From NCBI RefSeq assembly GCF_901000735.1, contig NC_081543.1:22277515-22341514 (forward strand): a stretch of 64,000 nucleotides of DNA, written 5' to 3'. Every line of letters starts with the position of its first letter. Positions within the stretch are counted from its first letter, which is position 1. The translations under genes and the position numbers were made by a program. The notes beneath the pieces are model-generated. The model was not told the origin of the DNA, searched no databases, and was given only the letters and a program-made list of their open reading frames with translations. This DNA is from Corylus avellana. Its lineage: Eukaryota > Streptophyta > Magnoliopsida > Fagales > Betulaceae. This document shows, in pieces, positions 1,913-24,654 of this stretch.

Positions 1913-2741
1913 AATTGTCCAGACGATCGCGCAAGGATGTGATCTGTGGAATCCCCAATACTCTTGGCTGCATCCAGGATACATGCACTGTTCCCTCAAC
2001 TTGATCAATTAGGCCCTCAATCAGATGAACCTGCAATAAAATTCTCTCAGTGGTTTGTATTCAATCAAAAGTTGTTCCACAAAAATTATGTAGTTGGTGA
2101 GGGAACAAAGTTTTCTTCTTTGATGCAAATGGTGTGAATAAGTTTTTTTGCAATCCCTAGATAATTTAATGAGAAACATATAATGTTAAAAGTGATTAAA
2201 CAAAAGAACTGATGTTGCAAGAAACATGCCAAGTAGGAAAGTCGCAAAGGTAGTAAACATTCACAAAGCATTTAAAGATCAATTACTCTTCATTAATATT
2301 TCAAGGGCATGGGGACTTACAGAAAGGCTCTTCATAAGAAGATGCTCCACCTCCTCGATAGAAAGTTTTGTGCGCTCTACAATGATACTCAAAGGTATAG
2401 TTCGATCATCAGATGACCGACTGCAAGGAAACATGTAGTAGTTAATCAATTATGCCAATTGTATCGGAAAAGACTTTGCTCTGGCACAAATCAAAGGTAG
2501 AACCCAAAAAAGAAAGAAAAAAAAAAATAGCACAAATGCTAAACCTGAAAATAATTTCCATCAAGCAAAGAATATTTATCTTTTCCACCAACTTTTTCTC
2601 ATTCTCAACTAATGCTGGTTGAGCCCTCAGAGCAGCATTGTGCACATGACATAGTTCCTGATAACGAACTAAATCACCAGAGTTGAATGCCTGAAGAATA
2701 TAGTAGAGCCACTCAACCTTTGTCCCTAGAAGACTCTTAAT
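1913..2741 (-). pseudogene. RPN9: RPN9 (26S proteasome lid subunit, PSMD13-like) 3'-part fragment
   Basis: Three consecutive minus-strand exons encode the C-terminal, PCI-domain part of proteasome regulatory subunit RPN9, a structural lid subunit of the 26S proteasome. The exons are 2741-2545 (LLGTKVEWLYYILQAFN..LVENEKKLVEKINIL), 2420-2321 (DDRTIPLSIIVERTKLSIEE) and 2030-1913 (VHLIEGLIDQVEGTVHVSW, then QPRVLGIPQITSLRDRLDN). They have consensus splice sites, matching phases and no stop codon. The family is about 386 residues long; this piece covers roughly residues 245-360. The upstream exons (N-terminal half) and the final ~25 codons are absent although sequence is available on both sides. 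Identification is from recognised family sequence; the truncation is seen directly. It is probably a captured fragment rather than a working gene. Confidence 0.85.
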
Positions 2742-3299
2742 CTGCAAAAAGTAAAAGATGTCACCACCCATCATAGGAGGCTGCTAAAAAGAAGCATCTA
2801 AAAATTTAGTAAGAGAAAAGACTCAGTATCGAAAAGCGAATTCATGTCACATCAAGAAACTCTTTCAAATGATCCAATACTCCAAAAAAATTACAGATCC
2901 ACCAGGAACATAAAAAAACATAAACTCTAGAGCAATGCGTGATGTGTAAGCCATTAAAATCCAAATCCAATTTCCATCCTTTTTGTCTTTTGGGTTGGTC
3001 TTGGATACCCATTGCTTTAACTTTATTCGTCTTTGTTTATGGTAATTCTATTTTGGGGTCATTTGGTTGCTGAGAAAATTTGGAGGAAAGAAATAAGAAC
3101 TTGGATTCTCATAATGGTTTTTGGTTTGAAAGTGGGTATTGTAATATGCCAAGTCCTATCGTCATTTTTCCATGCTGAACACTAATATCCTGGATTTAGA
3201 GTTTATTTGTGCTTCTTTGGAAAAGATTCCCCTCTAGATAACCTTCATGAAAACATGTCTAACAAAAAGAAACAAAGATGAATCCCAGGAAAGACTCAC

Positions 3300-6200
3300 A
3301 TAGTAAAAGGTGAAAGTGGTCTTGGCTTCGGTCCAGTATGGTGCTGATTACCCCCTGGTTTATCTGCTTTTGGAGATTGAGCTATGTTGTTCACTGACAA
3401 CGTAGCCATGTTGAATCCACCATCCGCATCAGATGTTGGGAGGAGTGACGTGGTAGGTGCATTAGGAGATGGGGATGTAGGGGGCTTAAAGTCATCATAT
3501 CTGAAAACAAAGTGTGCGCATTTTGTGTGGGAATCATTAAAAAAGAAGAAAAAAAAATTAGTTGTGAAAAAAATAAACACTAAAAGGTCATAACAAAGCA
3601 AAGAGAGCAAGGCTGTTCAGAATGGCTGATAAGAAAATAAAACAGCATTTATATTCTTGACACAAACTTAATCAGTTCGACAGCTTGTCATGTTGACTCT
3701 GACTTCAACCTTTAGGCAGATGGGAATAATGTAGCAGAACACCTTATTTGAAGGGTGAAAATAGATGAGAACCACATGAGAACCACTGAGGAGTAAACCA
3801 CCATAACACCTATGTTGTTTTGAAGGGATCAAATAGGTATCTTCATAATCATGAATTACTGAGGGTCATCACAACCACTAGATTCGTCTATATGCTGCAT
3901 ACAGAAGCCTTTTGAAAATTACAGAAGCAGTTACTAATTTGCTTACAGGAGGGATTTGTTTCGTCTTTGTTTTCATTTTTTTAATTGATTCTTGTTGGTA
4001 GGCTGCAATCCCGTAGCATACTTTTTTTGCCAAACTTAACGTAGCCTTTACTATTTAGATTGAACATAGAAAAAGAGTTGTACTACCAAATTTTATACTT
4101 CATTCTTAAAAGTGGAGATTATAATAGCAGATCTACTTTATGATAAAAGCAATCTCCATAGAAGTAGTTGATACTACTTCTACTGGTGTTGATGCACGGT
4201 AAGGAGTTCCTTTGGAACCACTTGATAGTGGAGATGGAGAGCTAGGTGGCTTTAAATCCTCATAACTAGCAAAATCAAATCAGCTCATAAAGAAACTGTC
4301 CAATATCTATGATTCAACAGAAAAGTATCAGAAATGGCTTATGCAACATATAATCGGCAGGATGAATATCTGCTTACACAAAATAAGGAGAGAGGGTTGC
4401 CTCGCCATCGCTTTTGCACTGGAAGGCTCCTTCTCAATGGTAGGGCTTGCTTCCTTGGATTTGACAGTCTTAGATGGTGCTAAATCAGGCCCAGCTGCAG
4501 CACCTGGATCCTGATAACACCAAAAGGAAGTAATTTTTTTTTGGCTCCTAAAGTAGTTGGCAATATTTCGTGAGCTATCCAATGAGATAGGAAAATCAAT
4601 TGATTGATCTTTCATAATTGAAGTCATGATAAGGTACCAATGATTCACCCTACCTCCTAGCTATTAAATTACCATTTATCCTAAAATCTTAAGCTAATAA
4701 GAAATGGTTAATTTAATCATTTAATTAATATTCTAACACTCCTCAAGTGTGGGCTCAAATTCTACATTAACAAGTAAAGTCCAACACATTGAATATTTAT
4801 TTGAAATGAGAGGTGAATTATAAAGACATGGTTTGAACCAATGATCTCTCCTCTGATATTATGTTAAATCACCACTTATTTTAAGCTTAAGCTAGCCATA
4901 GGTCATAATTAAGAGCAGGACCTCTGACCAACCCCATCCATTAAGATTTCTATACCACCATCTTAGCATGGCTTTAGCCCCATGTAAAGGATTTATCATC
5001 TCCTGACAGGATATGGAGGAGAGGCTACAAGAGAGGAGCCATTTCTGCTCCAGGATATTCAATATGCTCTCCTTTTCAAACAGTTTGAAAACAAGAGTTG
5101 CAGAAAGTCTAGACCATTAGAAGACAAGAGTTCGATAATGAGAAAGTTGAAAGCTCAATAACAATCAGAACAAAATCAATTAAGGAACATAGAGATCAGG
5201 TTTAGGCTCCAGTGTAAATGAATTTTATTATTTTAGGTAAGTAAACAGCTGTAGATAGAGCTAAATGATGAAACACATTCCGCTTAGATTACCCCTAGTA
5301 GTCAAATTTTCAAATTTTTGCTTCAGTAGCTTAAGCCACTCATTTCAAGCATGTTTGATGTCCATGGAATACAAGTCAAAGTACCTTTCGAGAGTAAATG
5401 TCAGCACGTTGAGATGGTATCTTTGCAAGAAGTTCCTCCATCGGAGTCAATGGTGCAGATGTCTCTGCAATTACCTCCACTACTTTACAGTATGAAAGGC
5501 TGCAGTTTTTGGCCATGACTGCCATGAGCTCTGCTACCTGCATCAATTGAAGTTGCTTCTGTTGTTGATGGGATTATGACAAGTTTCTTTCACCAAATAT
5601 AGATATGGATGTCTACAATTAGTTTTGCAGATAGAAATGCAAGTAAAAGATGACAAGACACCATTCAGAGAGATAAATCACTGCAGTGAATGAATCGCAG
5701 GTAGTAAGAATGCACATCCAGCATAGTTACAATTTGCATCTAAGCATAAACGGATAAGCACTATGTGAGAAAAAATCACAAATTCACACTTACAATAAGT
5801 TCTTTTGGTTTGGAAATGAAGTTAAGTACATAAAAATTAGATGTCTCTTTAGCATTTGATCTTTCAGTTTCACTATTTTGTCAATATAATTGAAAAGTTT
5901 TCTTCCTTCTGGGTACAACATGCAATATAAGCTGAGTAAAGTTTTTCAACTTTAAGAAAGCAATCAACATATAAAACATTCCCTAGCAACACAAATCAAA
6001 TTTGGAAAAGAAAAAACGAAACCTATGATCCAAAGCATCATTTCCAATTCTCTCTTTAATTCCTTAGCAAGTATACTTGGGAAAGGAAAAAAACAAAGGG
6101 GGAATCTTTGAGAAAAAAAAAAAGAACAAAATCACAAAGAATATGGACTTTCAATTATATCCCAATCAGCCAAGTAAACTAAACATAATTTACTATCTAT

Positions 6201-7032
6201 TGATAAATTATTCCATATTTTTCCATATCTATTTACATTTGACCTTAATTGCCGATAAGATGACTGGTCACACGTTATGATTCTACTGAAATTATAAAAT
6301 GTTTCAACCTTGAAACTGAGAGCATGCAGCAACTTAGCTATCACCTTTACAGCTTTTATTGAGTGGCAGGACAACATTCAGAGAGCTTTAAATCATTTTC
6401 CAGTCACATAAACAGGGCCTTGTTGAATACTGAATGAATTGAATGATACAATACATAATCGGTCAAAAAGAAAACATTTTTAGGAGTTGTGCTCATGGCT
6501 GAAATATTATTGCCAACTTGGGGAAAATGTACAGGAAGAATACCTGAAGGTTTGACACCTGGCCACCAAATAAAGTATCTTCCTGTGAGAGGGCAATATT
6601 ATGGGTTTCCTTGTAAGCATCAGTGGGCCGTTCCATGCCTCCAAGTCTCACTATCTGAAAAAAGACTGTTAAATGAGTAACCAGACACCACAAATCCCCA
6701 TATTTGTCAAACTTATCTGCAATTAATACTATTAACACTCACAGTGTAGGGAAGTCCACTGGCTAGCAGTGCTTCTTCTGCCTTCCTTTTCCAAATCAGA
6801 ACCTCCCAAAACAAACTATAGAAGCAGAAGAGAAGGACAATCAATAAAAGAAAACTAATGAAGAAGTATACATAGAGTACTTGTCTTTTGTTGAAAACTG
6901 AACTATAAGCAACATACTGCAAATTGTGACGAGGAAACTTCTAGACTTACTTTAGAATAGCAGCAGGAAAGCCAACCTTGTTTGTTCCCAATGAGGTAAG
7001 CAAAATGAAGTGTTTAACTTTCGCAGCAGTTG
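3300..7032 (-). pseudogene. TIC62: TIC62-like gene fragment (Rossmann C-terminal part plus FNR-binding repeats)
   Basis: Minus-strand exons match TIC62, the chloroplast inner-envelope/thylakoid protein that anchors ferredoxin-NADP reductase. Exons: 7032-6951 (HFILLTSLGTNKVGFPAAI), 6815-6743 (WKRKAEEALLASGLPYT), 6654-6544 (GGMERPTDAYKETHN, SQEDTLFGGQVSNLQ), 5537-5385 (CKVVEVIAETSAPLTP), 4510-4378 (linker), about 4265-4135 (YEDLKPPSSPSP repeat) and 3500-3300 (YDDFKPPTSPSP ... PRPLSPFTM repeat). The last two carry the Pro/Ser-rich repeat typical of the FNR-binding tail. The 5' exons (transit peptide and NAD(P)-binding GATGxxG part) and the last exon are missing. In exon 4510-4378 the LSPYF repeat is in another frame than the exon start, so a 1-nt frameshift is likely. 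The exon after it meets TAG at 4135-4133. I read this as a decayed fragment. Confidence 0.85.
4640..4900. repeat. short element with ~32-bp direct terminal repeats
   Basis: Two similar segments, near 4664-4696 and 4862-4895, both resemble TTAAATyACCAyTTATyyTAA followed by TTAAGCTA. They lie about 200 bp apart in direct orientation inside an intron of the TIC62 fragment. This could be a very small terminal-repeat element or its relic. No coding capacity. Confidence 0.35.
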
Positions 7033-7624
7033 CTGCACAGCAATAGAAGTAATAAAATAAGCATTTCCAAGCTTAAAGTAAATGTAATTGGTTGACTTAA
7101 TCAAGTTCTGCCCTCAAAAGGAAAAATCAACTGCATTTTCGTTCCCATCTTCCCAAATAATAGATTTCAGGCATACAAAGGAGAAAATAAAGCTATTTTT
7201 TGGCCTGCTTGAGTTCAGAAACCCTTCCATGTCAAGTACAAGGCAAGTCGGAGCATGATGATTCATGAGAAGGGGAATAAATATACAAAGTTCAGAAAAC
7301 TTAAAACTATGGGTTCAAGGTTATTTAACCCATAATTACAAAGTGAGAGAATTATGCAGATGTTGGCCCTTGTGTCAATTATTTGGAATACCTGATGTAA
7401 GCAGAAATCCACAAGCGGAAACCAAAATTCATACTGTAGACCATTCCACATGTTCAGCGCTTACAAAAACCATGCACCCACCATTCCACACTTGCAAAAA
7501 CTATACACCACCATCAGCCAAAAAACATCACTGCTTCCAAAAAATTCTTGTAACATGTACTAAAGCATTAGCTGAACAAAAAAGAGCAATGCTTTCAAAA
7601 AAACAAAACATCATGCTCAATCGC

Positions 7625-10600
7625 CTATTCAAATAGATTGAAACCCGTATCCTGCAGCAAATCAACTTAGTAAGTTAGCAAAACAAAAAAACCGTTATAA
7701 GTTATTAAAGAATAAAATTAAAATAGAAAAGAAAAAGGAAAAAGGAGAATGACAATGAACAATGTAAGTTGACAATAGCAGGGAGCTTCAAGTGTGTTTA
7801 CCTTAATAAAAGCAGTTTCCTGCGTTCCAATTATGCGATCATATTGAGTGTCAGTTATTGAAGCCAATGGAGCTTCATTTGTGTTAAATTCCCTTTCTTG
7901 AATTTCTTGGCAAGCCTTCAATTTAAAAAAGATACCAAATGTGTTACGATATGCTTGAAATGTTTGTATGCGATCACGCGTTTAGTAAGAATAAGTGAAA
8001 CACTCATAAAAGGAAGAAAAATAAGCAACCTGATTTTTTCTCCCCTTCTGGTTGGCATTGTTGTGACTCTGATGTTTCTTTTTTGTTTTTGTCACGACTT
8101 TTTCAACTGTAGACACCATTCTTTTGAATGGTGGCTTGCCTTTACATTTAACCGCTATAGGACTAAGAACCTTGGTACTTTTCACTACTACACCATCAAT
8201 GCCTTCATTACTTTTGGAAGATGCGCATGGAATATCATGGGAGGGTGGACTGGGTTCATACCTTGAGCACTTGTATTTCGCTAGCAACATGTCTATACAA
8301 TGCATGGCATCCATGTAATAGTCCTCACTGGTTGATGTAAGCGTTGCTAATTCACTACATTTTTTCAACAAGCAATCATATCTTTGGGCATCAGGGTTGC
8401 AACTGAAGACATTATAACTACTCTCAATAAGAGTATATGCGCGCTTCAAATCCTTTCTCCATCGGTCAAGAAAATATTTTGTGGGCAAAGATTTCACTTT
8501 CTTTAATGTCAGTACAGCAAGGGCATGCCTACACAAGATTCCTCTACATTCAAACAACCCACAAGTGCATTTAACTTCACATTCATCTCCATTAAAGTAA
8601 ACACAAAAATTCCGCTCTTTTGTGTAATCATCAACTGTTACCTCATCAGATACTTCGTAGGTAGAAATTGCACCTTCACTTTTAATAAGAGAGCAATTGC
8701 AATACATCAAGCAACTAAACTCCTGACGAACTTCTTTGAACTTTGCATTGGTATAAAGTTCTTGAAATTTCTTCTCAATAGAAAAATGAGATACACAGGG
8801 AATGGTGGCATTAAAAGAATTGAAATCAGCTACTTTCTCATTCTCAACCTTTCTCCTCAAAGCATTGTCAAATTGGTCAACAAATTCCTTCAGCGTGCTT
8901 CTGGAGTTCACATAATTATCAAAAAATGCATTCATACTTTCACTTCTTTGTGTAGTTTGCATTCCGGCCCAAAATGTATCTTTTAAATACGCTGGTATCC
9001 AATGAGCCCGCTCACTATATAACCAACACAACCATGCATTATCCCGAAGATTATACTTTTCCAGTACACCTTGCCAACTGTTATCAAATTCAACACAAGT
9101 TTGAGAGTCGTAGATTGCACTTTGTATGGCACTCTTCAAGCCACACTTGTATTGAGCATGTGATCCTAGCTTCTCTGGGAATTTTTTCATAATGTGCCAT
9201 AAACAAAATCTATGTCGGGCTCTAGGAAAAACTTTTGCAATTGCACTTTTCATAGCCTTATCCTGATCTGTTATTATTGCAACTGGAGCTTGGCCGTTCA
9301 TGCATTTCAACCATGTTTCAAACAACCAAACAAATGTGGTCGTATCCTCGCTTGATAGTAATCCGGCCCCGAAAAGTATTGACTGACCATGATGATTCAC
9401 TCCCACGAAAGGAGCAAATGGCATTTTGTATATATTGGTCAAATACGTCGTGTCAAATGTAACCACATCCCCAAAATACTTATATGCAGCCCTGCTTCGT
9501 GCATCAGCCCAGAACACATTCCTTAGCCTAGAGTCGTCGTCCAAATCCATCACAGCGTAGAAGCCATCATTCATTTCTCGCATTCTAGTAAAGTAGTCGT
9601 AAAGTACTCCAGCACCTCCTTTGCCAAGCCGAAGATGTCTTGCCTTGTTAATAAAATTTCGACAATCTCTCTCCATGAATGACAGATTCTCATACCCTCC
9701 ACCTTCAACAACAAGAGAGTTAAAGTTCTTACTCACACCTATCCCAGCTATATCGTTTAATTCGAGCCTTCTTTTCACATTATCATCCATCCTCCTATAG
9801 CATCGAAAAAATCTTGTTTTACTAGGGCTTAAAGAATGATTGTGGTTCACATTAACAGTAGTCAAACACCATGCTCCATCCCTGAACGATGCATTGATCT
9901 TGGCCTTACACCCAGTTTTCGTTGTCGGATTAGGCTTGTGAATATTAATTGCATCAGTTTGCTTCTTGCCATAACGAGCACATGTGAGGGTGACGTACTT
10001 ATGACTCCCGTCTGGATTATTTTTACCTCCTTTAGATGTCACCCCAAACCCCGATTGCTGAGCATACCGCCTATAATATAGTATTAGTTCTTTTTCAGAA
10101 CTAAACTTCATTCCTCCCTCCGGTTCTGCTTCTTTCTTATTGGATTGCACATCATTGTCATCCTTGTCTACCAACTCTAAATCACAGACAACTTCATTTT
10201 CATCTAGATGACAAAAAAAAAAAAATACAGTTACCCAATCAACATATCGGAACAAGATTGGAATCACAACATTTACTAAATGACAATCAACAACTAATGA
10301 ATAAAATTTACTATAAGAAAGAAACTCAATGATATTAATAAAAGAGTGTAAAGACTAACTAACCAATTTGAGGGGCAACTTCAAGGAATGGCTCGTCGTC
10401 ATTTGGAATCTATGTAAGCAGAGAATTGTTAGGTTCATAACAACCCCATTGCCAACTTTTAACATGTAATATATTCTCTCCTTTAAAAGCAGAGAAATAC
10501 TACACTTACCAAAAGTTTCCCCTAAAATTGGTTTCCAAGTGATATGTCACCATCCCATAAGATGGTCAAACATTTCCCAAAATAATAGATCTTATGAAAT

Positions 10601-12208
10601 GTTAAAACATCATTTGGGAAAGGAATTTTATGGAGAAATTTTAGTAAGTGTAGCATTTTCATTAGAAGCAACATATAAATACTTTACATTGAGAATAGGG
10701 ATGTGAAACGATTATTAAATTGGGAGGGTGGGGGGAACCTCTAACATTAATACCTGCATCAATTGCTCAGGCATTACAGATTCAGATCCCATCACAAGTG
10801 GTAATGAGGCAGGAGGCACTAAAGCTTCACCAATGGCCCCAACAGTGTGACTTTGTGTATTGGCTCCTGCGGAAGTTATAGTGAGTACAAAATCATCACA
10901 ACCAAGAGAGGATGAAAATATAGATGGTCACACATAAGCAGGAATCATTTAGGTTGAAATTGAAAAATATACCATCTGCAACCATATGGTGAAACCTTCT
11001 TTTCTTACTTCCATAAGAATCCTACATTGATTGGCACGTTTTCATAAGACAACAAATAAAGAACAACATATCAACAGAGCAATGTAAAGTTAATGCTATA
11101 AATAAATATTTCAATCATTACGGCGTATGCATACGTAAAACACCAAACTGATCAATTGAGAAACCAAACCCTATTGATTGATGATATAATGTACCTGTTT
11201 CTCATTATTCTTTTCAATTGCATCTAATGTACCCTCATTATCACTATCAACACTATTAGCAAGAGGGGAAGACAAACAATGTGAAGCACTGTCATTGCAT
11301 GCGCTTCCAGGAGTTCCCATGGATTTTTTAGTGCAAACTCGATCATTTCCATAGGGGCCCTTCCCTTCCAACTCTATATTGACATGTAGTGGGTTTGGAG
11401 TCTACAGAAGATATAGGAAAAAACTTAGATGACAAATTCATAAACTTTACAATATTTATACGCAGCAGCGATGTGCTTAATCGTGTCACACGTGCAGCAC
11501 GTGTTTGCATTGTAATATATATAAGTGACTAGGATTACCATGGTCATATTGCAGCACGTGTTTGCATTGTAATATATATAAGTGACTAGGATTACCGTGG
11601 TCATATTAGGATGAGTATAAACTCCCCATGGAGGCAATAAACCAGGGTATGGAACTGGCATCCCATATGGTGGAACTGGCATCCCATATGGTGGGATCAA
11701 CAGATGCTGAAACATCACCAAGAAAGAAAATAAGAACCTTATATCCTATACATAATGTATGCATCTACATGATCCAAAGCATAGCTATAATTCACCTGGC
11801 TTCTTGATAGATAGGGGTTGGGAGTTGTAGAAGCAACTGTTGAGGCAAAAAATGGGGCCTGCGTAGCTCCAAGATAATAATAAGCATAATCAAGAAACAC
11901 TGGGTATCCGAAATTAATCCATATAAATAATGAAAAAAATTCATAGTCATAATGATTTTTTTGGTTCTTTAAAAAAAACTAAACTAAACATATTCTTATC
12001 ACGAACCTGCAAGGAGCTCGACCAATCAAAATAATGCGTTGTTGGTATTTCCTGAAAAAGTAAATGACAATACTTTAAAACACCTGAAAATAATAATAAT
12101 AAAATGTAAAAGAATATAATTAGGGTGTTAAGAAAAAGACAAGGATACCTGAGCTGAAGAAGATGGTTTGGAAGGATTAGGAGGCTTGCTCTCTTCCCCT
12201 ATCCCCAT
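7625..12208 (-). CDS. Chimeric GBF N-terminus / FAR1-related MULE transposase gene (11 exons)
   Basis: Predicted exons, 5' to 3' on the minus strand: 12208-12149, 12051-12007, 11858-11796, 11706-11596, 11401-11195, 11021-10973, 10866-10754 (GBF part, 216 codons), then 10409-10364, 10203-8030, 7915-7802 and 7651-7625 (FAR1 part, 786 codons plus stop). All boundaries are GT-AG and all phases agree, giving about 1002 residues without a stop. The first part is a G-box-binding-factor proline-rich region (DWSSSLQ, PPYGMPVPYPGLLPPWGVY); it ends in MPEQLMQ, where relatives continue into the bZIP basic region. The second part has a FAR1-type zinc-finger DNA-binding domain (about 262-352), a MULE transposase core with candidate acidic residues D482 (VTFDTTY), D544 (ITDQDKAM) and E653 (SESMNAFF), and a SWIM finger (CTC...CRH, 777-791). 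The start ATG at 12208 is the usual GBF start. The fusion is inferred from splice phase; transcription is not shown. The two 3' exons are the least certain. Alternatively this is a separate FAR1 gene downstream of a GBF fragment. Confidence 0.7.
8030..10203 (-). CDS. FAR1-related / MULE transposase main exon
   Basis: One uninterrupted 2174-nt exon carries all the recognisable FAR1-RELATED SEQUENCE domains. These are the FAR1 DNA-binding region beginning GMKFSSEKELILYYRRYA, the MULE transposase DDE region (FDTTYLTN, AIITDQDKAMKSAIAKVFP, FCLWHIMKKFPEKLG, RSESMNAFFDNYVN), and a SWIM zinc finger followed by a basic tail (KGKPPFKR, TKTKKKHQSH). FAR1/FRS proteins are nuclear transcription regulators domesticated from Mutator-like transposases; a still mobile MULE would look similar. 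The frame has no lesion, unlike the hAT transposases further along, so it is either under selection or young. No initiator ATG precedes it inside its own splice-bounded exon. Confidence 0.9.
10494..10660. mobile_element. MITE (TIR GAAATGCTACACTTACC), copy 1
   Basis: A roughly 167-bp element with terminal inverted repeats (left GAAATACTACACTTACC, right end the complement of GAAAATGCTACACTTAC) and a similar internal inverted part (CCCATAAGATGG / TCTTATG). It is clearly related to the copy at 24234-24402. It lies in the intron joining the GBF and FAR1 halves of the chimeric gene. Confidence 0.8.
11494..11607. repeat. Tandem 57-bp duplication over a splice donor, with G-boxes
   Basis: Two adjacent 57-bp copies (11494-11550 and 11551-11607) differ at one base. 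On the minus strand each carries an ACC(A/G)TG-type exon end followed by GTAATCC, so the GBF exon 4 donor exists twice. Each copy holds CACGTG (11498-11503 and 11555-11560), and a third CACGTG lies at 11489-11494. Confidence 0.9.
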
Positions 12209-13204: not shown

Positions 13205-13308
13205 CTTGGACAAAATTCCAGGATTTGTAGCCCCTCCAATGTAGTTCAAAAGCAAAACCCTTCCAACTGGTGCTCGATTGGGGAAAAGTGATGAGCTATA
13301 TATAGTTC
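13205..13308 (-). pseudogene. Single exon of chloroplast protoporphyrinogen oxidase (PPO1/HEMG-like)
   Basis: A 104-nt minus-strand exon with consensus acceptor (GTTGCAG) and donor (GTATGA) encodes [20 protein letters not shown] followed by [14 protein letters not shown]. This stretch is diagnostic for plastid protoporphyrinogen IX oxidase, the enzyme making protoporphyrin IX for chlorophyll and haem. No other exon of this gene of about 530 codons is visible nearby, so it is an isolated fragment. It sits between the ITPK exon and the GBF exons, all in the same orientation. The exon itself has no lesion. Confidence 0.8.
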
Positions 13309-14530: not shown

Positions 14531-14612
14531 CTTATGCAAAACAACGTCGAAAGGACCTTGATCGGACAGAGGCCTCTTTAAATCAATGGGTACAAAAAAT
14601 ATCCCCTTATTC
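14531..14612 (-). pseudogene. Single exon of an inositol-tetrakisphosphate 1-kinase (ITPK) family gene
   Basis: An 82-nt minus-strand exon bounded by GCTGCAG and GTTAGT encodes NKGIFFVPIDLKRPLSDQGP followed by FDVVLHK. This resembles the N-terminal region of plant inositol 1,3,4-trisphosphate 5/6-kinases (xGPFDxxLHK), which act in inositol-phosphate and phytate synthesis. Nothing else of the gene is visible before the gap at 15016. The family assignment is from memory of the conserved motif and is less certain than the neighbouring fragments. Confidence 0.6.
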
Positions 14613-15015
14613 CTGCAGCACAAATAACATTTTATTGGTCAGAAAACAGTCGTGAATTTCAGTCATCAAATGGATAAAAGCTCCCTTCCTCCAAAACGTA
14701 CCCAACAAAGAAATTTAAATATTGTAGCTTCTACCTAGCTAAAAGAGATCACACATAATTAAGCAAACGGGACAAACCATTTCAGATCAGATAGCCATCA
14801 AAGTGTTTCCACTAACAAAAATGCCGGTGACGTTGGGGAGAGGAGAGGACGCACGGTGGAGAAAAGGGGTTGGGGAGGAAAAATGGAGAAAGGAAAGGGG
14901 TCGGTCGACGGTGGGGGAGAGGAGATCACGGCGCCGGTTTCAGTGGGACCACGGAGCCGGAGCATGCGCCGGCGTCGGTGGAGAGAGTTTTCGGTGGAGG
15001 GAGAATGGGGTGGAG

Positions 15016-15128
15016 NNNNNNNNNNNNNNNNNNNNNNNNNNNNNNNNNNNNNNNNNNNNNNNNNNNNNNNNNNNNNNNNNNNNNNNNNNNNNNNNNNNNN
15101 NNNNNNNNNNNNNNNNNNNNNNNNNNNN
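15016..15128. other. Assembly gap (113 N)
   Basis: Run of undetermined bases. The flanks are G-rich (GGGGTGGAG / TGGGTTTGGGGGG). Frames predicted across it are artefacts. Confidence 1.
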
Positions 15129-15622
15129 AATGGGTTTGGGGGGAAATTTTTTGGGTGGGGGGAAATGCTGTCGAAGTCGTGCCTCTGTTTTGATATATAT
15201 ATATATTTTAAAAAAAAAAAAAAAAAAAAACCAGAGGCTACGACGTGGCATGTGCCACGTCAGCAGCCACGTCAGTGGCGTGCGTTACTATTCACGCACG
15301 CCGCGTAGCGTAGATCATTACTCATATAATATACACTAAAAAATTAAAAAAAACAAAAAAAAACCCTACAATCTTTCTTTCTAATTCTCATTAGCCGAAC
15401 CCAGCGACCCACACAGCCGCACCTCCATCCCCTTCCCCTCCATCCTCTCTCCGTCTCTCGACTCTCACTCTCACTCTTGCCGGCATTGCCGCTCTCTTTG
15501 CTCTCACTCTCTCAGACTCTCACTCTTGCTGCTCCTCTCTCACTATCGCCGCTCCTCTCTCTCTCTCGCCTCTCCCTGAGCACTGACCACCGTAGTCCGC
15601 TCCCAGGTTTCTCTCTCTCTCT

Positions 15623-15730
15623 CTTGGCTCTCACAAATAGGGTTTTTTGTTTCTTTATCTTGGCTCTCACAGATAGGGTTTTTTGTTTCTTTATCTTGGC
15701 TCTCACAGTTAGTGTTTTTTGTTTTTAATG
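15623..15730 (+). repeat. Three tandem 36-bp repeats in a CT-rich leader
   Basis: The unit CTTGGCTCTCACA(A/G)ATAGG followed by GTTTTTTGTTTCTTTAT begins at 15623, 15659 and 15695. It follows a CT-rich stretch (15360-15620) that probably is the 5' untranslated leader of the hAT transposase downstream. Confidence 0.85.
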
Positions 15731-16085
15731 ATTTTTTTGTTCTAGATTCTTGTTAAGGATTGCATTTAAATTTGGGCTTTTGTTGAAGTAATGATTTTAA
15801 TGTTGAAGTAGTGATTTTTTGTTAATGTTTGATTTTTTGTTCTGTATTGTTTGATTTCCATGCCCTTGCAACCATGCTCATGCTCATTTTTGGACCATTT
15901 TTGTACCATCAGGACTCAATCTCTTCGTGGACCTTCTCTGTGAAAGGTAATTGTCTAAGTTGAAAGGCTCTTGTTGCTCCTGGAGATGATTTTACTATTT
16001 TTTGTCCTGCAATTTCATGTTGAAAAATGAGATGATTATGCAATATTAATTTGTTTTTTTTTTTTTTACCACTTATTGTAGACTC

Positions 16086-19000
16086 ATGGATGGTCATTCA
16101 ACTAATGGTATTGGTTCTAGTTCTGCTTCATCTACTCATAGTGATAATGTTAGCACTCAAAACCCTAGTTCAGCTCTCCCACCAAAACCTAAAAAATCTG
16201 AGCAAACATCAATGGTTTGGGAACATTTTACCAAGGTAGAGGGGGGTGATCCTGAGGATCCTAAATCACAATGCAAGTATTGTAATAAATTGTTTAGTTG
16301 TCACACTAGAAGGCTAGGTACTTCATCCATGCTTGTGCATTTGAGGAATTCTTGCAAAAAAATATCTCGGTAGTTGTGATAAAGATAATAAGTCACAATC
16401 AAAGTTAAGTTTTGAGGTTAAAAGGGAAGGACAAATGGCAGTGGGAGAAGGATCTGTTCGTAATTTGGTGATTACAAAATACAATGCTATGAAAATAAGG
16501 GAAGTAATTGCTAAGATGATAATTAAGGATGAGTTGCCATTTAGGTTTGTGGAAGGTGAAGAGTTTCAGGATTTGATGAAGACACTTGAGCCTAGGTTTG
16601 GAATTCCTTCTCGTTATACTATGATGAAGGATTGTGTTGAGCTCTTCATGTCTGAGAAGGAAAAGTTGAGGGCAATGTTCATCTCAAATAGTGTTTGGGC
16701 TTGCATTACCACTGATACGTGGACTTCGGTGCAGAACCTTAATTACATGGTAATCACCTCCCATTTTATTGATAGTGATTGAAACTTACACAAGAATTTT
16801 AAACTTTTGTTTAATTCCTAATCACAAAGGCGATACCATTGAGGAGAAGATTTTGTTGTGTATGCTTGAGTGGGGTGTTCGTAACATTTTCACTATCACA
16901 GTTGACAATGCTATTGCCAATGATGCTGCTTTGGAATACGTGAAGAGGAGAATTCGTAGTAAGGAGGGCGCCATATTAGAGAGTCAGTTTATGCATATGA
17001 GGTGTTGTGCATACATACTAAATCTTATTGTGACTGATGGTTTGCAAGAGGTTGATGACTCCATTGTGAGGGTTAGAAGTGCGGTGAAGTATGTGAAGTC
17101 TTCACCTGCAAGATTTGAGAAGTATAAGGTTTGTATTGAAAGAGAACAACTTTTTTTCAAGGGTTTGTTGTGTCTTGATGTTCCAACTAGATGAAACTCT
17201 ACATTTTTTATGTTGGAAGGTGCTGAAAAATGTCGAGCTGCTTTCCAACTTATGGAAGAGTTTGATAAAAACTTTAAGCCTACGTTGACTGAAGAAAAGA
17301 ATAAGAAAAATGGTTTGGGACCTCCTACTTCTACTGATTGGAATCGAATTAGGACTTTTCTCAAATTTCTCAAACTTTTTTACGATGCCACAATGCGAAT
17401 TTCAGGGTCTTTGTATTGTACATCTAATATGTACTTTCAAGAAATTTGTGGCATTCAAATGCATTTACAAGAGTATATTGATAATGGTGATTATGTATTG
17501 AGTGCTATGGCGGAGAAGATAATGACGAAGTACAACAAATATTGGGGGGATCTTGATAACAATGATAAGGTTAACTTGATGATGTTTGTTGCGGTTATAC
17601 TTGATCCACGAACCAAATTAGGGGCATTAGAATATTGGTTCAAAGATGTTCTTGGTGTCGATAGATGTATTGAAATGATGAAAAAATTGAGGTGCATCCT
17701 TAACAAATTATATGATCACTGCAGCTTCGGAGATAGTGCATCTCAAGTTCAACATGGTAGTGAATTGTCTCAAGGTTCCTCAATAACAATAGAAGAAAAT
17801 GAGAATGCTAACCTTTGCTTCATGAATAGGTTTCACAAGTACCTAACTTCTAAAAGTGATATTGAAAGCAAATCGGAAATGGATCGATATTTGATGGAGG
17901 ATGTTGAGAAAGCGAATGCGAATTTCGATATTTTAAATTGGTGGAAGGTGAATGCTGTGCAAATTTTAATACTCGCAAGTGCACGAATCGTTTGCAATAT
18001 AATGTTTTGCAAGTGCGATGTCAAACCCACAAGGAATTGTGTTTTTGAAAGAGCAATTTATATCTAAACTAATTAAATCCTAACCTAGTTCCAAAAGGGT
18101 TTTGAATTTGGAGTTTTGAAAATTAAAAGATGAAACATAAACTAATTAAAATAAACTAAGAGATAAAATACTAAGGTTTGGGAATTCACACTCACCTAAT
18201 CATAACAACATACTTCCATGTTTATCAATATTAATCTGAAGTTCTCACAATTAAAATCTTAGATATGTTTTACTAGGCTTTAAACAATTAATCAAAATCA
18301 TCTCATATATCCATTCATTACACAAATCACAAAAGGAATCCAATATCAATTAAATCATCAGATGTATCCGTAGAACAAATCACAAGGGATATCCAATTTT
18401 TAGGCATATAAAACTAAGCAATCAATTATTTGAAATTATCTTAAATCATCAAGTGTATCATTGAATCACAACAAGATATCCAAGAATTATTCCTCACATT
18501 GAAAAGAAGTGAAACAATTGACATTAAGCTCAATAAAATTAGAATAATAAAAACTTACATAAAAGTAACGTTGTTCTTCATTGGTGAGGCTTCATCCCCA
18601 ACCTTAGTTGAGAATTTAACTCCGCATAAATAAAACTAAAATCTAAACCTAAACTTAACTAATGAGAAAAACTGTAGAATCTTGCTCTCTGGTATTGTGT
18701 ATCTTTTCTTGAATGCAAAAAAGTTTATTTAGAGGCTTAGGAGAGTCCTAGAAGCCCTAGTCAACCTAGATAATTCGGAGGTCTGTCCCCCAGTCCAAAT
18801 AGAAGTCTGAAATCGAAATAGGATTCGTCTTGATTTGTGTCTTTTTTTTTGGAGCAATTTTGGCATTGTAATTGTCCGAATTAGGAAAACCCTATTTCAC
18901 AATGAACTGTATTATTTTGAGTTAGCTTTCCAATGCCACTTGAATTACCTCGATCCGATAGTTGAGTGGAAAGTTATGGTCAAAATACTAAGACATGTGC

Positions 19001-24110: not shown

Positions 24111-24233
24111 ATATTTGGTGAGAAATGTTACACACTCAAATATTTATTTTTTGATGTGACATTAAAAATTATCATTAAAGTTTAAATAAATCACTATTAA
24201 ATTTTGAATCAAATGATAATTTTTATGAAAGAT

Positions 24234-24402
24234 AAATGCTATACTTCACCAAATTTTCTCTCCAAAATTGGTTCCCAAGTGATATGTCACCCATCTCATA
24301 AGATGGTGACACATTTTCCAAAAATAATATATTTTATGGGATGGTGACACATCATTTATGAACCAACTTTTGAGAAAAAAATTTGGTAAGTGTAGCATTT
24401 TC
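24234..24402. mobile_element. MITE (TIR AAATGCTACACTTACC), copy 2
   Basis: 169-bp element; left end AAATGCTATACTTCACCAAA, right end the complement of AAATGCTACACTTACCAAAT. The interior also folds back (CCCATCTCATAAGATGGTG). Same family as 10494-10660. Confidence 0.85.
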
Positions 24403-24654
24403 CTTTACGAAATATACACTTCAAAATATAAAAATAAAAGTGTATAGCATTATCATGTATCATATTAAGAAGATAAGATAAATGATAAAATTCTTTCATT
24501 TTTCAACAATCTTTTAACTATCTCTATAATGAATGGATGAATCCACTATTGAATTTGAGTGGGGTCCAAATGAGTCCACAAATTTAATGGTTGATATATT
24601 AAATTTGTAGGATGAGATGGAAAAAATATTAACGTTAATCAGTTCTCGAAAAGA

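What the first reader, a model, noticed from the sequence alone, without database searches (positions are those of the whole stretch)
7625..12208. In-frame fusion of a GBF proline-rich domain to a FAR1/MULE transposase
Seven GBF exons (216 codons, every phase consistent) stop exactly where the bZIP basic-region exon should follow. The next exons on the strand encode an intact FAR1-type protein that lacks its own ATG exon. Phase 0 meets phase 0, giving about 1002 codons without a stop. The GBF N-terminal domain normally regulates transcription; attached to a FAR1 DNA-binding domain it could make a new light-signalling regulator or a transposase driven by a host promoter. A chance phase match is 1 in 3, so transcript evidence matters.
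Basis: partly seen in the sequence, partly recalled or inferred. Interest (0 to 1): 0.9.

Follow-up and report, generated by a model that had tools for sequence, protein, structure and literature searches.

The report
Transposase fused to captured GBF domain
A large plant jumping gene appears to have swallowed the front half of a host light-response regulator (GBF), which now stands in frame at the start of its transposase gene; the same join is found in several copies in this genome, two of them older relatives, so it is more than a chance neighbourhood.

Summary
The fusion exists as described: 11 exons, 1002 codons, phase 0 to phase 0. It is not a lone host gene but the transposase gene of a large Mutator-like element. 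Of 10 copies of this FAR1 gene seen in the same genome, 8 carry the GBF part with it. The element's 5' end is at 15323, shown against an empty-site copy of the flank; a second locus shows the same. A tandem pair on C7, about 25% diverged, has the same junction; one member is an open 1016-aa fusion with a fuller GBF N-terminus. A GBF gene about 1 Mb away on C7 is the likely donor or its sister. A FAR1 relative without GBF has its own ATG 20 codons before the junction point; the fused copies lack that stretch. FAR1 is under purifying selection (omega about 0.4). GBF is near neutral in amino acids (about 1), yet both compared frames are open (neutral simulation P about 0.01). Best reading: captured GBF exons supply start codon and leader. 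Expression and other species are untested.

The parts
14825..15323 (-). 5' terminal region of the element; terminus at 15323 (GAGTAATGATCTAC...), interrupted by an assembly gap (N) at 15016-15128
   Evidence: End matches other copies; flank without element present as a second copy; inverted counterpart at the far end of copies C1_20.8 and C11_12.2
14531..14612 (-). captured exon of inositol 1,3,4-trisphosphate 5/6-kinase (ITPK), with AG and GT borders
   Evidence: PF17927 1.1e-11; borders, and found in the window copy only
13205..13308 (-). captured exon resembling protoporphyrinogen oxidase (PPOX), with AG and GT borders
   Evidence: PF01593 0.0017, below its cut-off; PPOX name recalled; found in 2 other copies
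12149..12208 (-). GBF exon 1 with ATG; similarity to C7 copies and host GBF starts at about 12284
12007..12051 (-). GBF exon 2
11796..11858 (-). GBF exon 3, with substitute acceptor downstream of the native one
11596..11706 (-). GBF exon 4
11195..11401 (-). GBF exon 5 including the remnant of a former intron
10973..11021 (-). GBF exon 6
10754..10866 (-). GBF exon 7, internally shortened; ends ...MPEQLMQ (C7_B: ...MPEQWIQ)
10410..10753 (-). junction intron; contains a short dispersed repeat at about 10495-10658
10364..10409 (-). exon 8, first FAR1 exon (IPNDD...); its start corresponds to a point inside coding sequence in the GBF-free relative
8030..10203 (-). exon 9: FAR1, MULE and SWIM domains
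   Evidence: MULE 1.8e-35, FAR1 3.7e-14, SWIM 9.8e-08
7802..7915 (-). exon 10
7625..7651 (-). exon 11 with stop codon
5376..7110 (-). fragments of a TIC62-like gene inside the element (name recalled)
   Evidence: shared at 99% with C2_43.4 and C11_9.5 down to 5667; no telling family match and no PDB match for the pieces tried
2442..2783 (-). captured fragment of 26S proteasome subunit 13 (Rpn9)
   Evidence: PDB 8amz_O 3.6e-32 and 26S proteasome subunit 13 chains

Best explanation
The gene is the transposase gene of a large Mutator-like element of the FAR1/SWIM type. In an ancestor, the first seven coding exons and part of the 5' leader of a GBF gene became joined to a FAR1 transposase gene. 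The GBF exon 7 donor splices to an acceptor at a point that is coding in a GBF-free relative, and the transposase lost its own ATG stretch. Shown: gene structure, copies, element end, donor-like host gene, selection contrast. Inferred: the transcript is spliced across the junction; translation starts at the GBF ATG; the GBF peptide is tolerated as a leader whose frame, not whose sequence, is kept by selection on the transposase; the promoter of the window copy lies in the element or in other captured sequence. Still possible: the GBF peptide helps, for instance in activation or protein contacts.
For: 8 of the 10 copies of this FAR1 gene seen carry GBF and FAR1 together. C7_B is an open 1016-codon fusion with 12 exons and GT-AG introns at the same junction. 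FAR1 omega 0.41 (0.33-0.50) for WIN vs C7_B, ML 0.43 over four copies. GBF omega 0.99 (0.62-1.61), ML 1.12; C7_A vs C7_B 0.92. Under neutral substitution about 4.4-5.0 stops were expected in the two GBF frames and none is seen, P 0.007-0.012. GBF exon indels WIN vs C11_5.4: 3 of 3 multiples of three, introns 2 of 7; intron indels WIN vs C7_B 5 of 23. The GBF-free relative reads MDISSSRLDNEGKVESLYTH-IPNDD from its own ATG; exon 8 starts at IPNDD; a search with that N-terminus found it in no fused copy, and GBF was found neither in the relative's locus nor in the 2 kb before it. Copies about 99% identical on other chromosomes, and two flanks present with and without the element, indicate recent movement.
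Against: No transcript data. Splice sites were chosen knowing the frame, exon 3 of WIN and the acceptor of C7_B's seventh piece among them. The simulation treats substitutions only, and the copies compared were picked for being intact. C11_5.4, counted as open, has lost the exon 4 acceptor AG; its 90-nt exon 4 could be skipped in frame. C2_33.2 has a broken FAR1 but a GBF part whose only clear fault is the exon 3 acceptor, so GBF and FAR1 intactness do not go strictly together. A conserved in-frame Met opens the FAR1 domain, so FAR1 could start there. Synonymous divergence is higher in FAR1 (0.53) than in GBF (0.24) or introns (0.29). The host GBF is closer to the C7 copies (about 0.16) than the WIN family is (about 0.28): with a single capture this needs faster change in the mobile lineage or conversion between host and C7 copies. 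GBF exons did change somewhat less than introns on the WIN branch (20 of 282 vs 34 of 335 sites), so weak constraint is possible.
Confidence: 0.68

Rival explanations
1. Chance neighbourhood: a GBF fragment beside a FAR1 gene that is transcribed and translated on its own from an internal start.
For: Near-neutral amino-acid change in the GBF part; a conserved in-frame Met at the start of the FAR1 domain; no RNA evidence.
Against: Same junction in window-type copies and in the about 25% diverged C7 pair; GBF frames open against expectation; native FAR1 ATG stretch missing in the fused copies. The 45 codons before the Met have omega 0.55, but with an interval of 0.25-1.39 that decides nothing.
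Confidence: 0.15
2. Domesticated chimeric regulator: the tandem C7 genes, or the family as a whole, serve the plant as a GBF-FAR1 transcription factor, and the mobile copies derive from it.
For: C7_B is open, keeps a strong MFMR match (2.8e-26) and lies about 1 Mb from a GBF gene with a bZIP match; apart from one short palindrome no inverted repeats were seen in the 40 kb around the C7 pair.
Against: GBF part omega about 0.9 also within the C7 pair; C7_A is broken; the window copy sits in a multi-copy mobile element.
Confidence: 0.2
3. Two independent captures: WIN and C7 lineages each joined a GBF piece to FAR1.
For: Host GBF is closer to the C7 copies than WIN is.
Against: Same junction with an alignable junction intron; GBF, introns and FAR1 are all about 1.5-2.1 times more diverged between WIN and C7_B than between C7_A and C7_B; 9 exon sites where window-type and both C7 copies agree against the host (without an outgroup these are not proof).
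Confidence: 0.12

Closest known systems
Kaonashi (KIU) genes with a transduplicated ULP1 domain in VANDAL-type MULEs
   Same: A mobile MULE carries a captured host coding domain that is kept across lineages (PMC13317346 and PMC2528002, passages read)
   Different: KIU is described as one of three coding genes of a non-TIR element; here a transcription-factor N-terminus is joined in frame to the transposase itself, in an element family with inverted ends
Pack-MULEs / transduplication
   Same: Several host gene fragments carried between the ends
   Different: Pack-type elements are non-autonomous (PMC8903248, abstract start in a listing); this one carries an open transposase frame
FAR1/FHY3/FRS genes
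   Same: FAR1, MULE and SWIM domains
   Different: Those are described as domesticated (PMC2528002, passages); this family is mobile and fused to GBF exons
Vertebrate host-transposase fusion genes (recalled; only search listings seen)
   Same: Host exons spliced in frame to a transposase
   Different: There a host gene gains a transposase domain; here the element gains host exons and still moves

Membership tests
Mutator-like element (MULE) | MULE transposase domain | tested here: met
   PF10551 1.8e-35
Mutator-like element (MULE) | terminal inverted repeats | tested here: met
   Copy C1_20.8: 279-bp inverted ends, 87%, the outermost part of its left end missing. Window copy: 5' end only, the other end not found before an assembly gap
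Mutator-like element (MULE) | 9-bp target site duplication (recalled) | tested here: inconclusive
Mutator-like element (MULE) | multi-copy and mobile | tested here: met
   10 copies of the FAR1 gene seen, two others about 99% identical to the window copy on other chromosomes; two empty-site flanks
FAR1/FRS domesticated family | FAR1, MULE and SWIM domains | tested here: met
FAR1/FRS domesticated family | immobile host gene | tested here: not met
   for the window copy
GBF (G-group bZIP) | MFMR N-terminal region | tested here: met
   PF07777 1.1e-12
GBF (G-group bZIP) | basic leucine zipper | tested here: not met
   no PF00170 match in the window or at C7:2.19-2.20 Mb among the 39 listed
Pack-MULE | carries host gene fragments | tested here: met
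Pack-MULE | no transposase gene | tested here: not met
   open FAR1-MULE-SWIM frame

The most novel reading that the evidence does not exclude
The element took over a host regulatory domain: the proline-rich GBF part makes the transposase act in trans on chromatin or transcription, for example relieving silencing of its own family or steering insertion towards GBF-bound genes.
Probability: 0.12. Interest if true: 0.85.

Novelty: new variant of a known kind. Interest (0 to 1): 0.62.

Why it matters
It would show a transposon replacing the start of its own transposase with exons of a host transcription factor and still spreading. The frame is kept while the amino acids drift, which separates 'needs an open reading frame' from 'needs this domain'. 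A donor-like gene, an older tandem pair and mobile copies coexist in one genome, so the route from capture to spread can be tested directly.

Tried and rejected
Homologues in other species: the protein database is switched off, so conservation outside this genome is untested. PDB by sequence for the transposase: 0 matches. Right-hand end and target site duplication of the window element: the contig stops at a gap and the other copies could not be extended. A DNA search for all GBF-bearing copies did not complete, so copy numbers are lower bounds. Regular-expression search for the ends timed out; BLAST replaced it. Rejected: LTR element; the long direct repeats beside three copies (WIN, C2_43.4, C11_9.5) look like the second haplotype placed behind N gaps, and for the first two they show the site without the element. 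Not supported: capture of the GBF promoter by the window family. Not shown: amino-acid selection on the GBF part. An apparent frameshift at the end of exon 4 of C2_33.2 was an alignment artefact; its exon 4 donor is normal. Literature: titles and abstract starts listed showed no GBF-FAR1 fusion, and one search listed 0 papers; this covers only the open-licence library. One search (hazelnut and Mutator) listed 0 papers.
Full report
WHAT IS THERE. On the minus strand, 11 exons from 12208 to 7625 join into one frame of 1002 codons plus stop. The first seven (216 codons) match the GBF N-terminal family MFMR; the last four hold FAR1, MULE and SWIM domains. Exon 7 and exon 8 meet in phase 0. In-frame stops stand 4 and 11 codons before the ATG in 7 of 7 copies that have exon 1 in hand.

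COPIES. A search of the window's own genome (370 Mb, 12 contigs) with a stretch of exon 9 gave 9 matches, the window included. Fetching around them showed a tenth, the second member of a tandem pair on C7. GBF and FAR1 lie together in 8 of the 10: the window copy (WIN), C2_43.4, C11_9.5 (first three exons lost in an assembly gap), C11_5.4, C2_33.2, C1_20.8, C7_A and C7_B. C11_12.2 and C1_31.3 lack the GBF part. Frames: WIN, C2_43.4 and C7_B are open throughout; C11_9.5 is open over what is present; C11_5.4 is open but has AA for AG before exon 4. C2_33.2 is broken in FAR1, with an inserted stretch, and has lost the AG before exon 3, while the rest of its GBF part looks sound. C1_20.8 is broken in FAR1, lacks exon 4 and has changed acceptors before exons 3 and 7. 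C7_A is broken in FAR1 and has a 2-nt insertion in exon 1 and a partial exon 5. These numbers are lower bounds.

ELEMENT. The terminus GAGTAATGATCTAC lies at 15323 and recurs in other copies; copy C1_20.8 has 279-bp inverted ends at 87%, the outermost part of its left end being absent. The flank next to the WIN terminus (91% over 1395 columns) and next to the C2_43.4 terminus (99% over 2586) reappears further on without the element, the likeness stopping at the insertion point, behind N gaps. I read this as the second haplotype: the insertions are recent and polymorphic (inference). From 15323 the WIN element runs past the window's left edge; stretches shared with other copies reach to about window -8056 (23.4 kb) and the contig stops at a gap at about -9490; its right end was not found. 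It carries other host fragments: an ITPK exon (found in no other copy), a PPOX-like exon, TIC62-like exons (name recalled), a proteasome subunit 13 fragment and a threonine deaminase fragment in L025.

THE OLDER FORM. C7_B reads as 12 exons with GT-AG introns and 1016 codons: 260 of GBF, with a longer exon 7 ending MPEQWIQ, then the FAR1 part starting at the same point. That GBF genes continue with the basic region after this point is recalled. Three other MFMR loci (C7:1.19 Mb, C7:5.39 Mb, C3:11.78 Mb) have a bZIP match 2-7 kb downstream on the same strand. The 801 bases fetched from C7:1.19 Mb hold open exons 1-4 and match the fused copies through introns as well; C7_A and C7_B are at 0.155-0.165 difference and WIN at 0.25. 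Similarity of WIN to this locus, and to the C7 copies, starts about 76 nt before the ATG. The C7 copies match the host to the end of the piece in hand, only about 25 nt further, so whether they keep the GBF promoter is not known.

HOW THE FRAME WAS JOINED. A FAR1 relative without GBF in C11_12.2 (about 50% identical, broken by stops later in its frame) starts MDISSSRLDNEGKVESLYTH-IPNDD in one exon. Exon 8 of the fusion starts at IPNDD. That N-terminus was found in none of the fused copies, and no GBF match lies in the relative's locus or the 2 kb before it. So the acceptor stands where the relative is coding, and the native ATG stretch is gone or changed beyond recognition.

SELECTION. Nei-Gojobori, WIN vs C7_B: GBF 0.99 (0.62-1.61), FAR1 0.41 (0.33-0.50); WIN vs C11_5.4: GBF 1.48 (0.64-5.26), FAR1 0.37 (0.24-0.57). 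ML over four copies: 1.12 and 0.43 (runs, values read). C7_A vs C7_B: 0.92 (0.52-1.71) and 0.56 (0.43-0.74). Against a neutral process, both GBF frames are open (P 0.007-0.012), and GBF exon indels between WIN and C11_5.4 are all multiples of three (3 of 3; introns 2 of 7). Of WIN against C7_B, the intron indels are 5 of 23 multiples of three. Frame kept, amino acids free: this is what is expected if the GBF exons serve as start codon and leader of a selected transposase. The P values lean on splice choices made with the frame in view and on copies chosen because they are intact.

RESULTS AGAINST. Synonymous divergence of FAR1 is about twice that of GBF and introns. The host GBF is closer to the C7 copies than WIN is, which with one capture needs faster change in the mobile lineage or conversion. 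C-to-T and G-to-A changes make up 15 of 54 WIN-branch changes, no clear deamination excess to explain faster change. GBF exons changed somewhat less than introns on the WIN branch (20 of 282 against 34 of 335), so weak constraint remains possible. A conserved in-frame Met opens the FAR1 domain; the 45 codons before it have omega 0.55 (0.25-1.39), which decides nothing.

COMPARISON. MULEs with captured host domains are known: ULP1 in Kaonashi elements of Arabidopsis and in MULEs of grapevine, melon and rice (PMC13317346, PMC2528002, passages). A study of 18,744 FAR1 genes (PMC8599713, abstract start in a listing, and a term search of its main text) holds neither 'bZIP' nor 'chimeric'. I saw no GBF-FAR1 fusion in the titles and abstract starts listed; one search listed none.

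VERDICT. A real fusion, a transposon's own gene, shared by several copies of two ages; a new variant of gene capture by MULEs. Transcription, translation start, other species and any role of the GBF peptide remain open.

Noticed in passing
window 2442-2783, 5376-7110, 13205-13308, 14531-14612; L025:6972-7805: The element carries fragments of at least five other host genes (proteasome subunit 13, TIC62-like, PPOX-like, ITPK, threonine deaminase); the first four stand in the same orientation as the transposase.
   Followed up: partly
window 15324-16677 and its second copy at about window -9591 to -10948 (L025/L035); flanks of C2_43.4 and C11_9.5: Flanking sequence appears twice around three copies, with N gaps between: the assembly seems to hold both haplotypes in series, with and without the element.
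   Followed up: partly
about window -5866 to -7400 (L025), in reverse orientation: A diverged C-terminal FAR1 piece lies inverted towards the far end of the same element and in at least three other copies, facing the fused gene.
   Followed up: no
C11:12.225-12.227 Mb (start of L019): A GBF-free FAR1 relative with its own ATG, broken by stops further on, next to a truncated copy of the fused family.
   Followed up: partly
window 10495-10658 and 24230-24405: A short dispersed repeat sits in the junction intron of the window-type copies and again at 24.3 kb.
   Followed up: no
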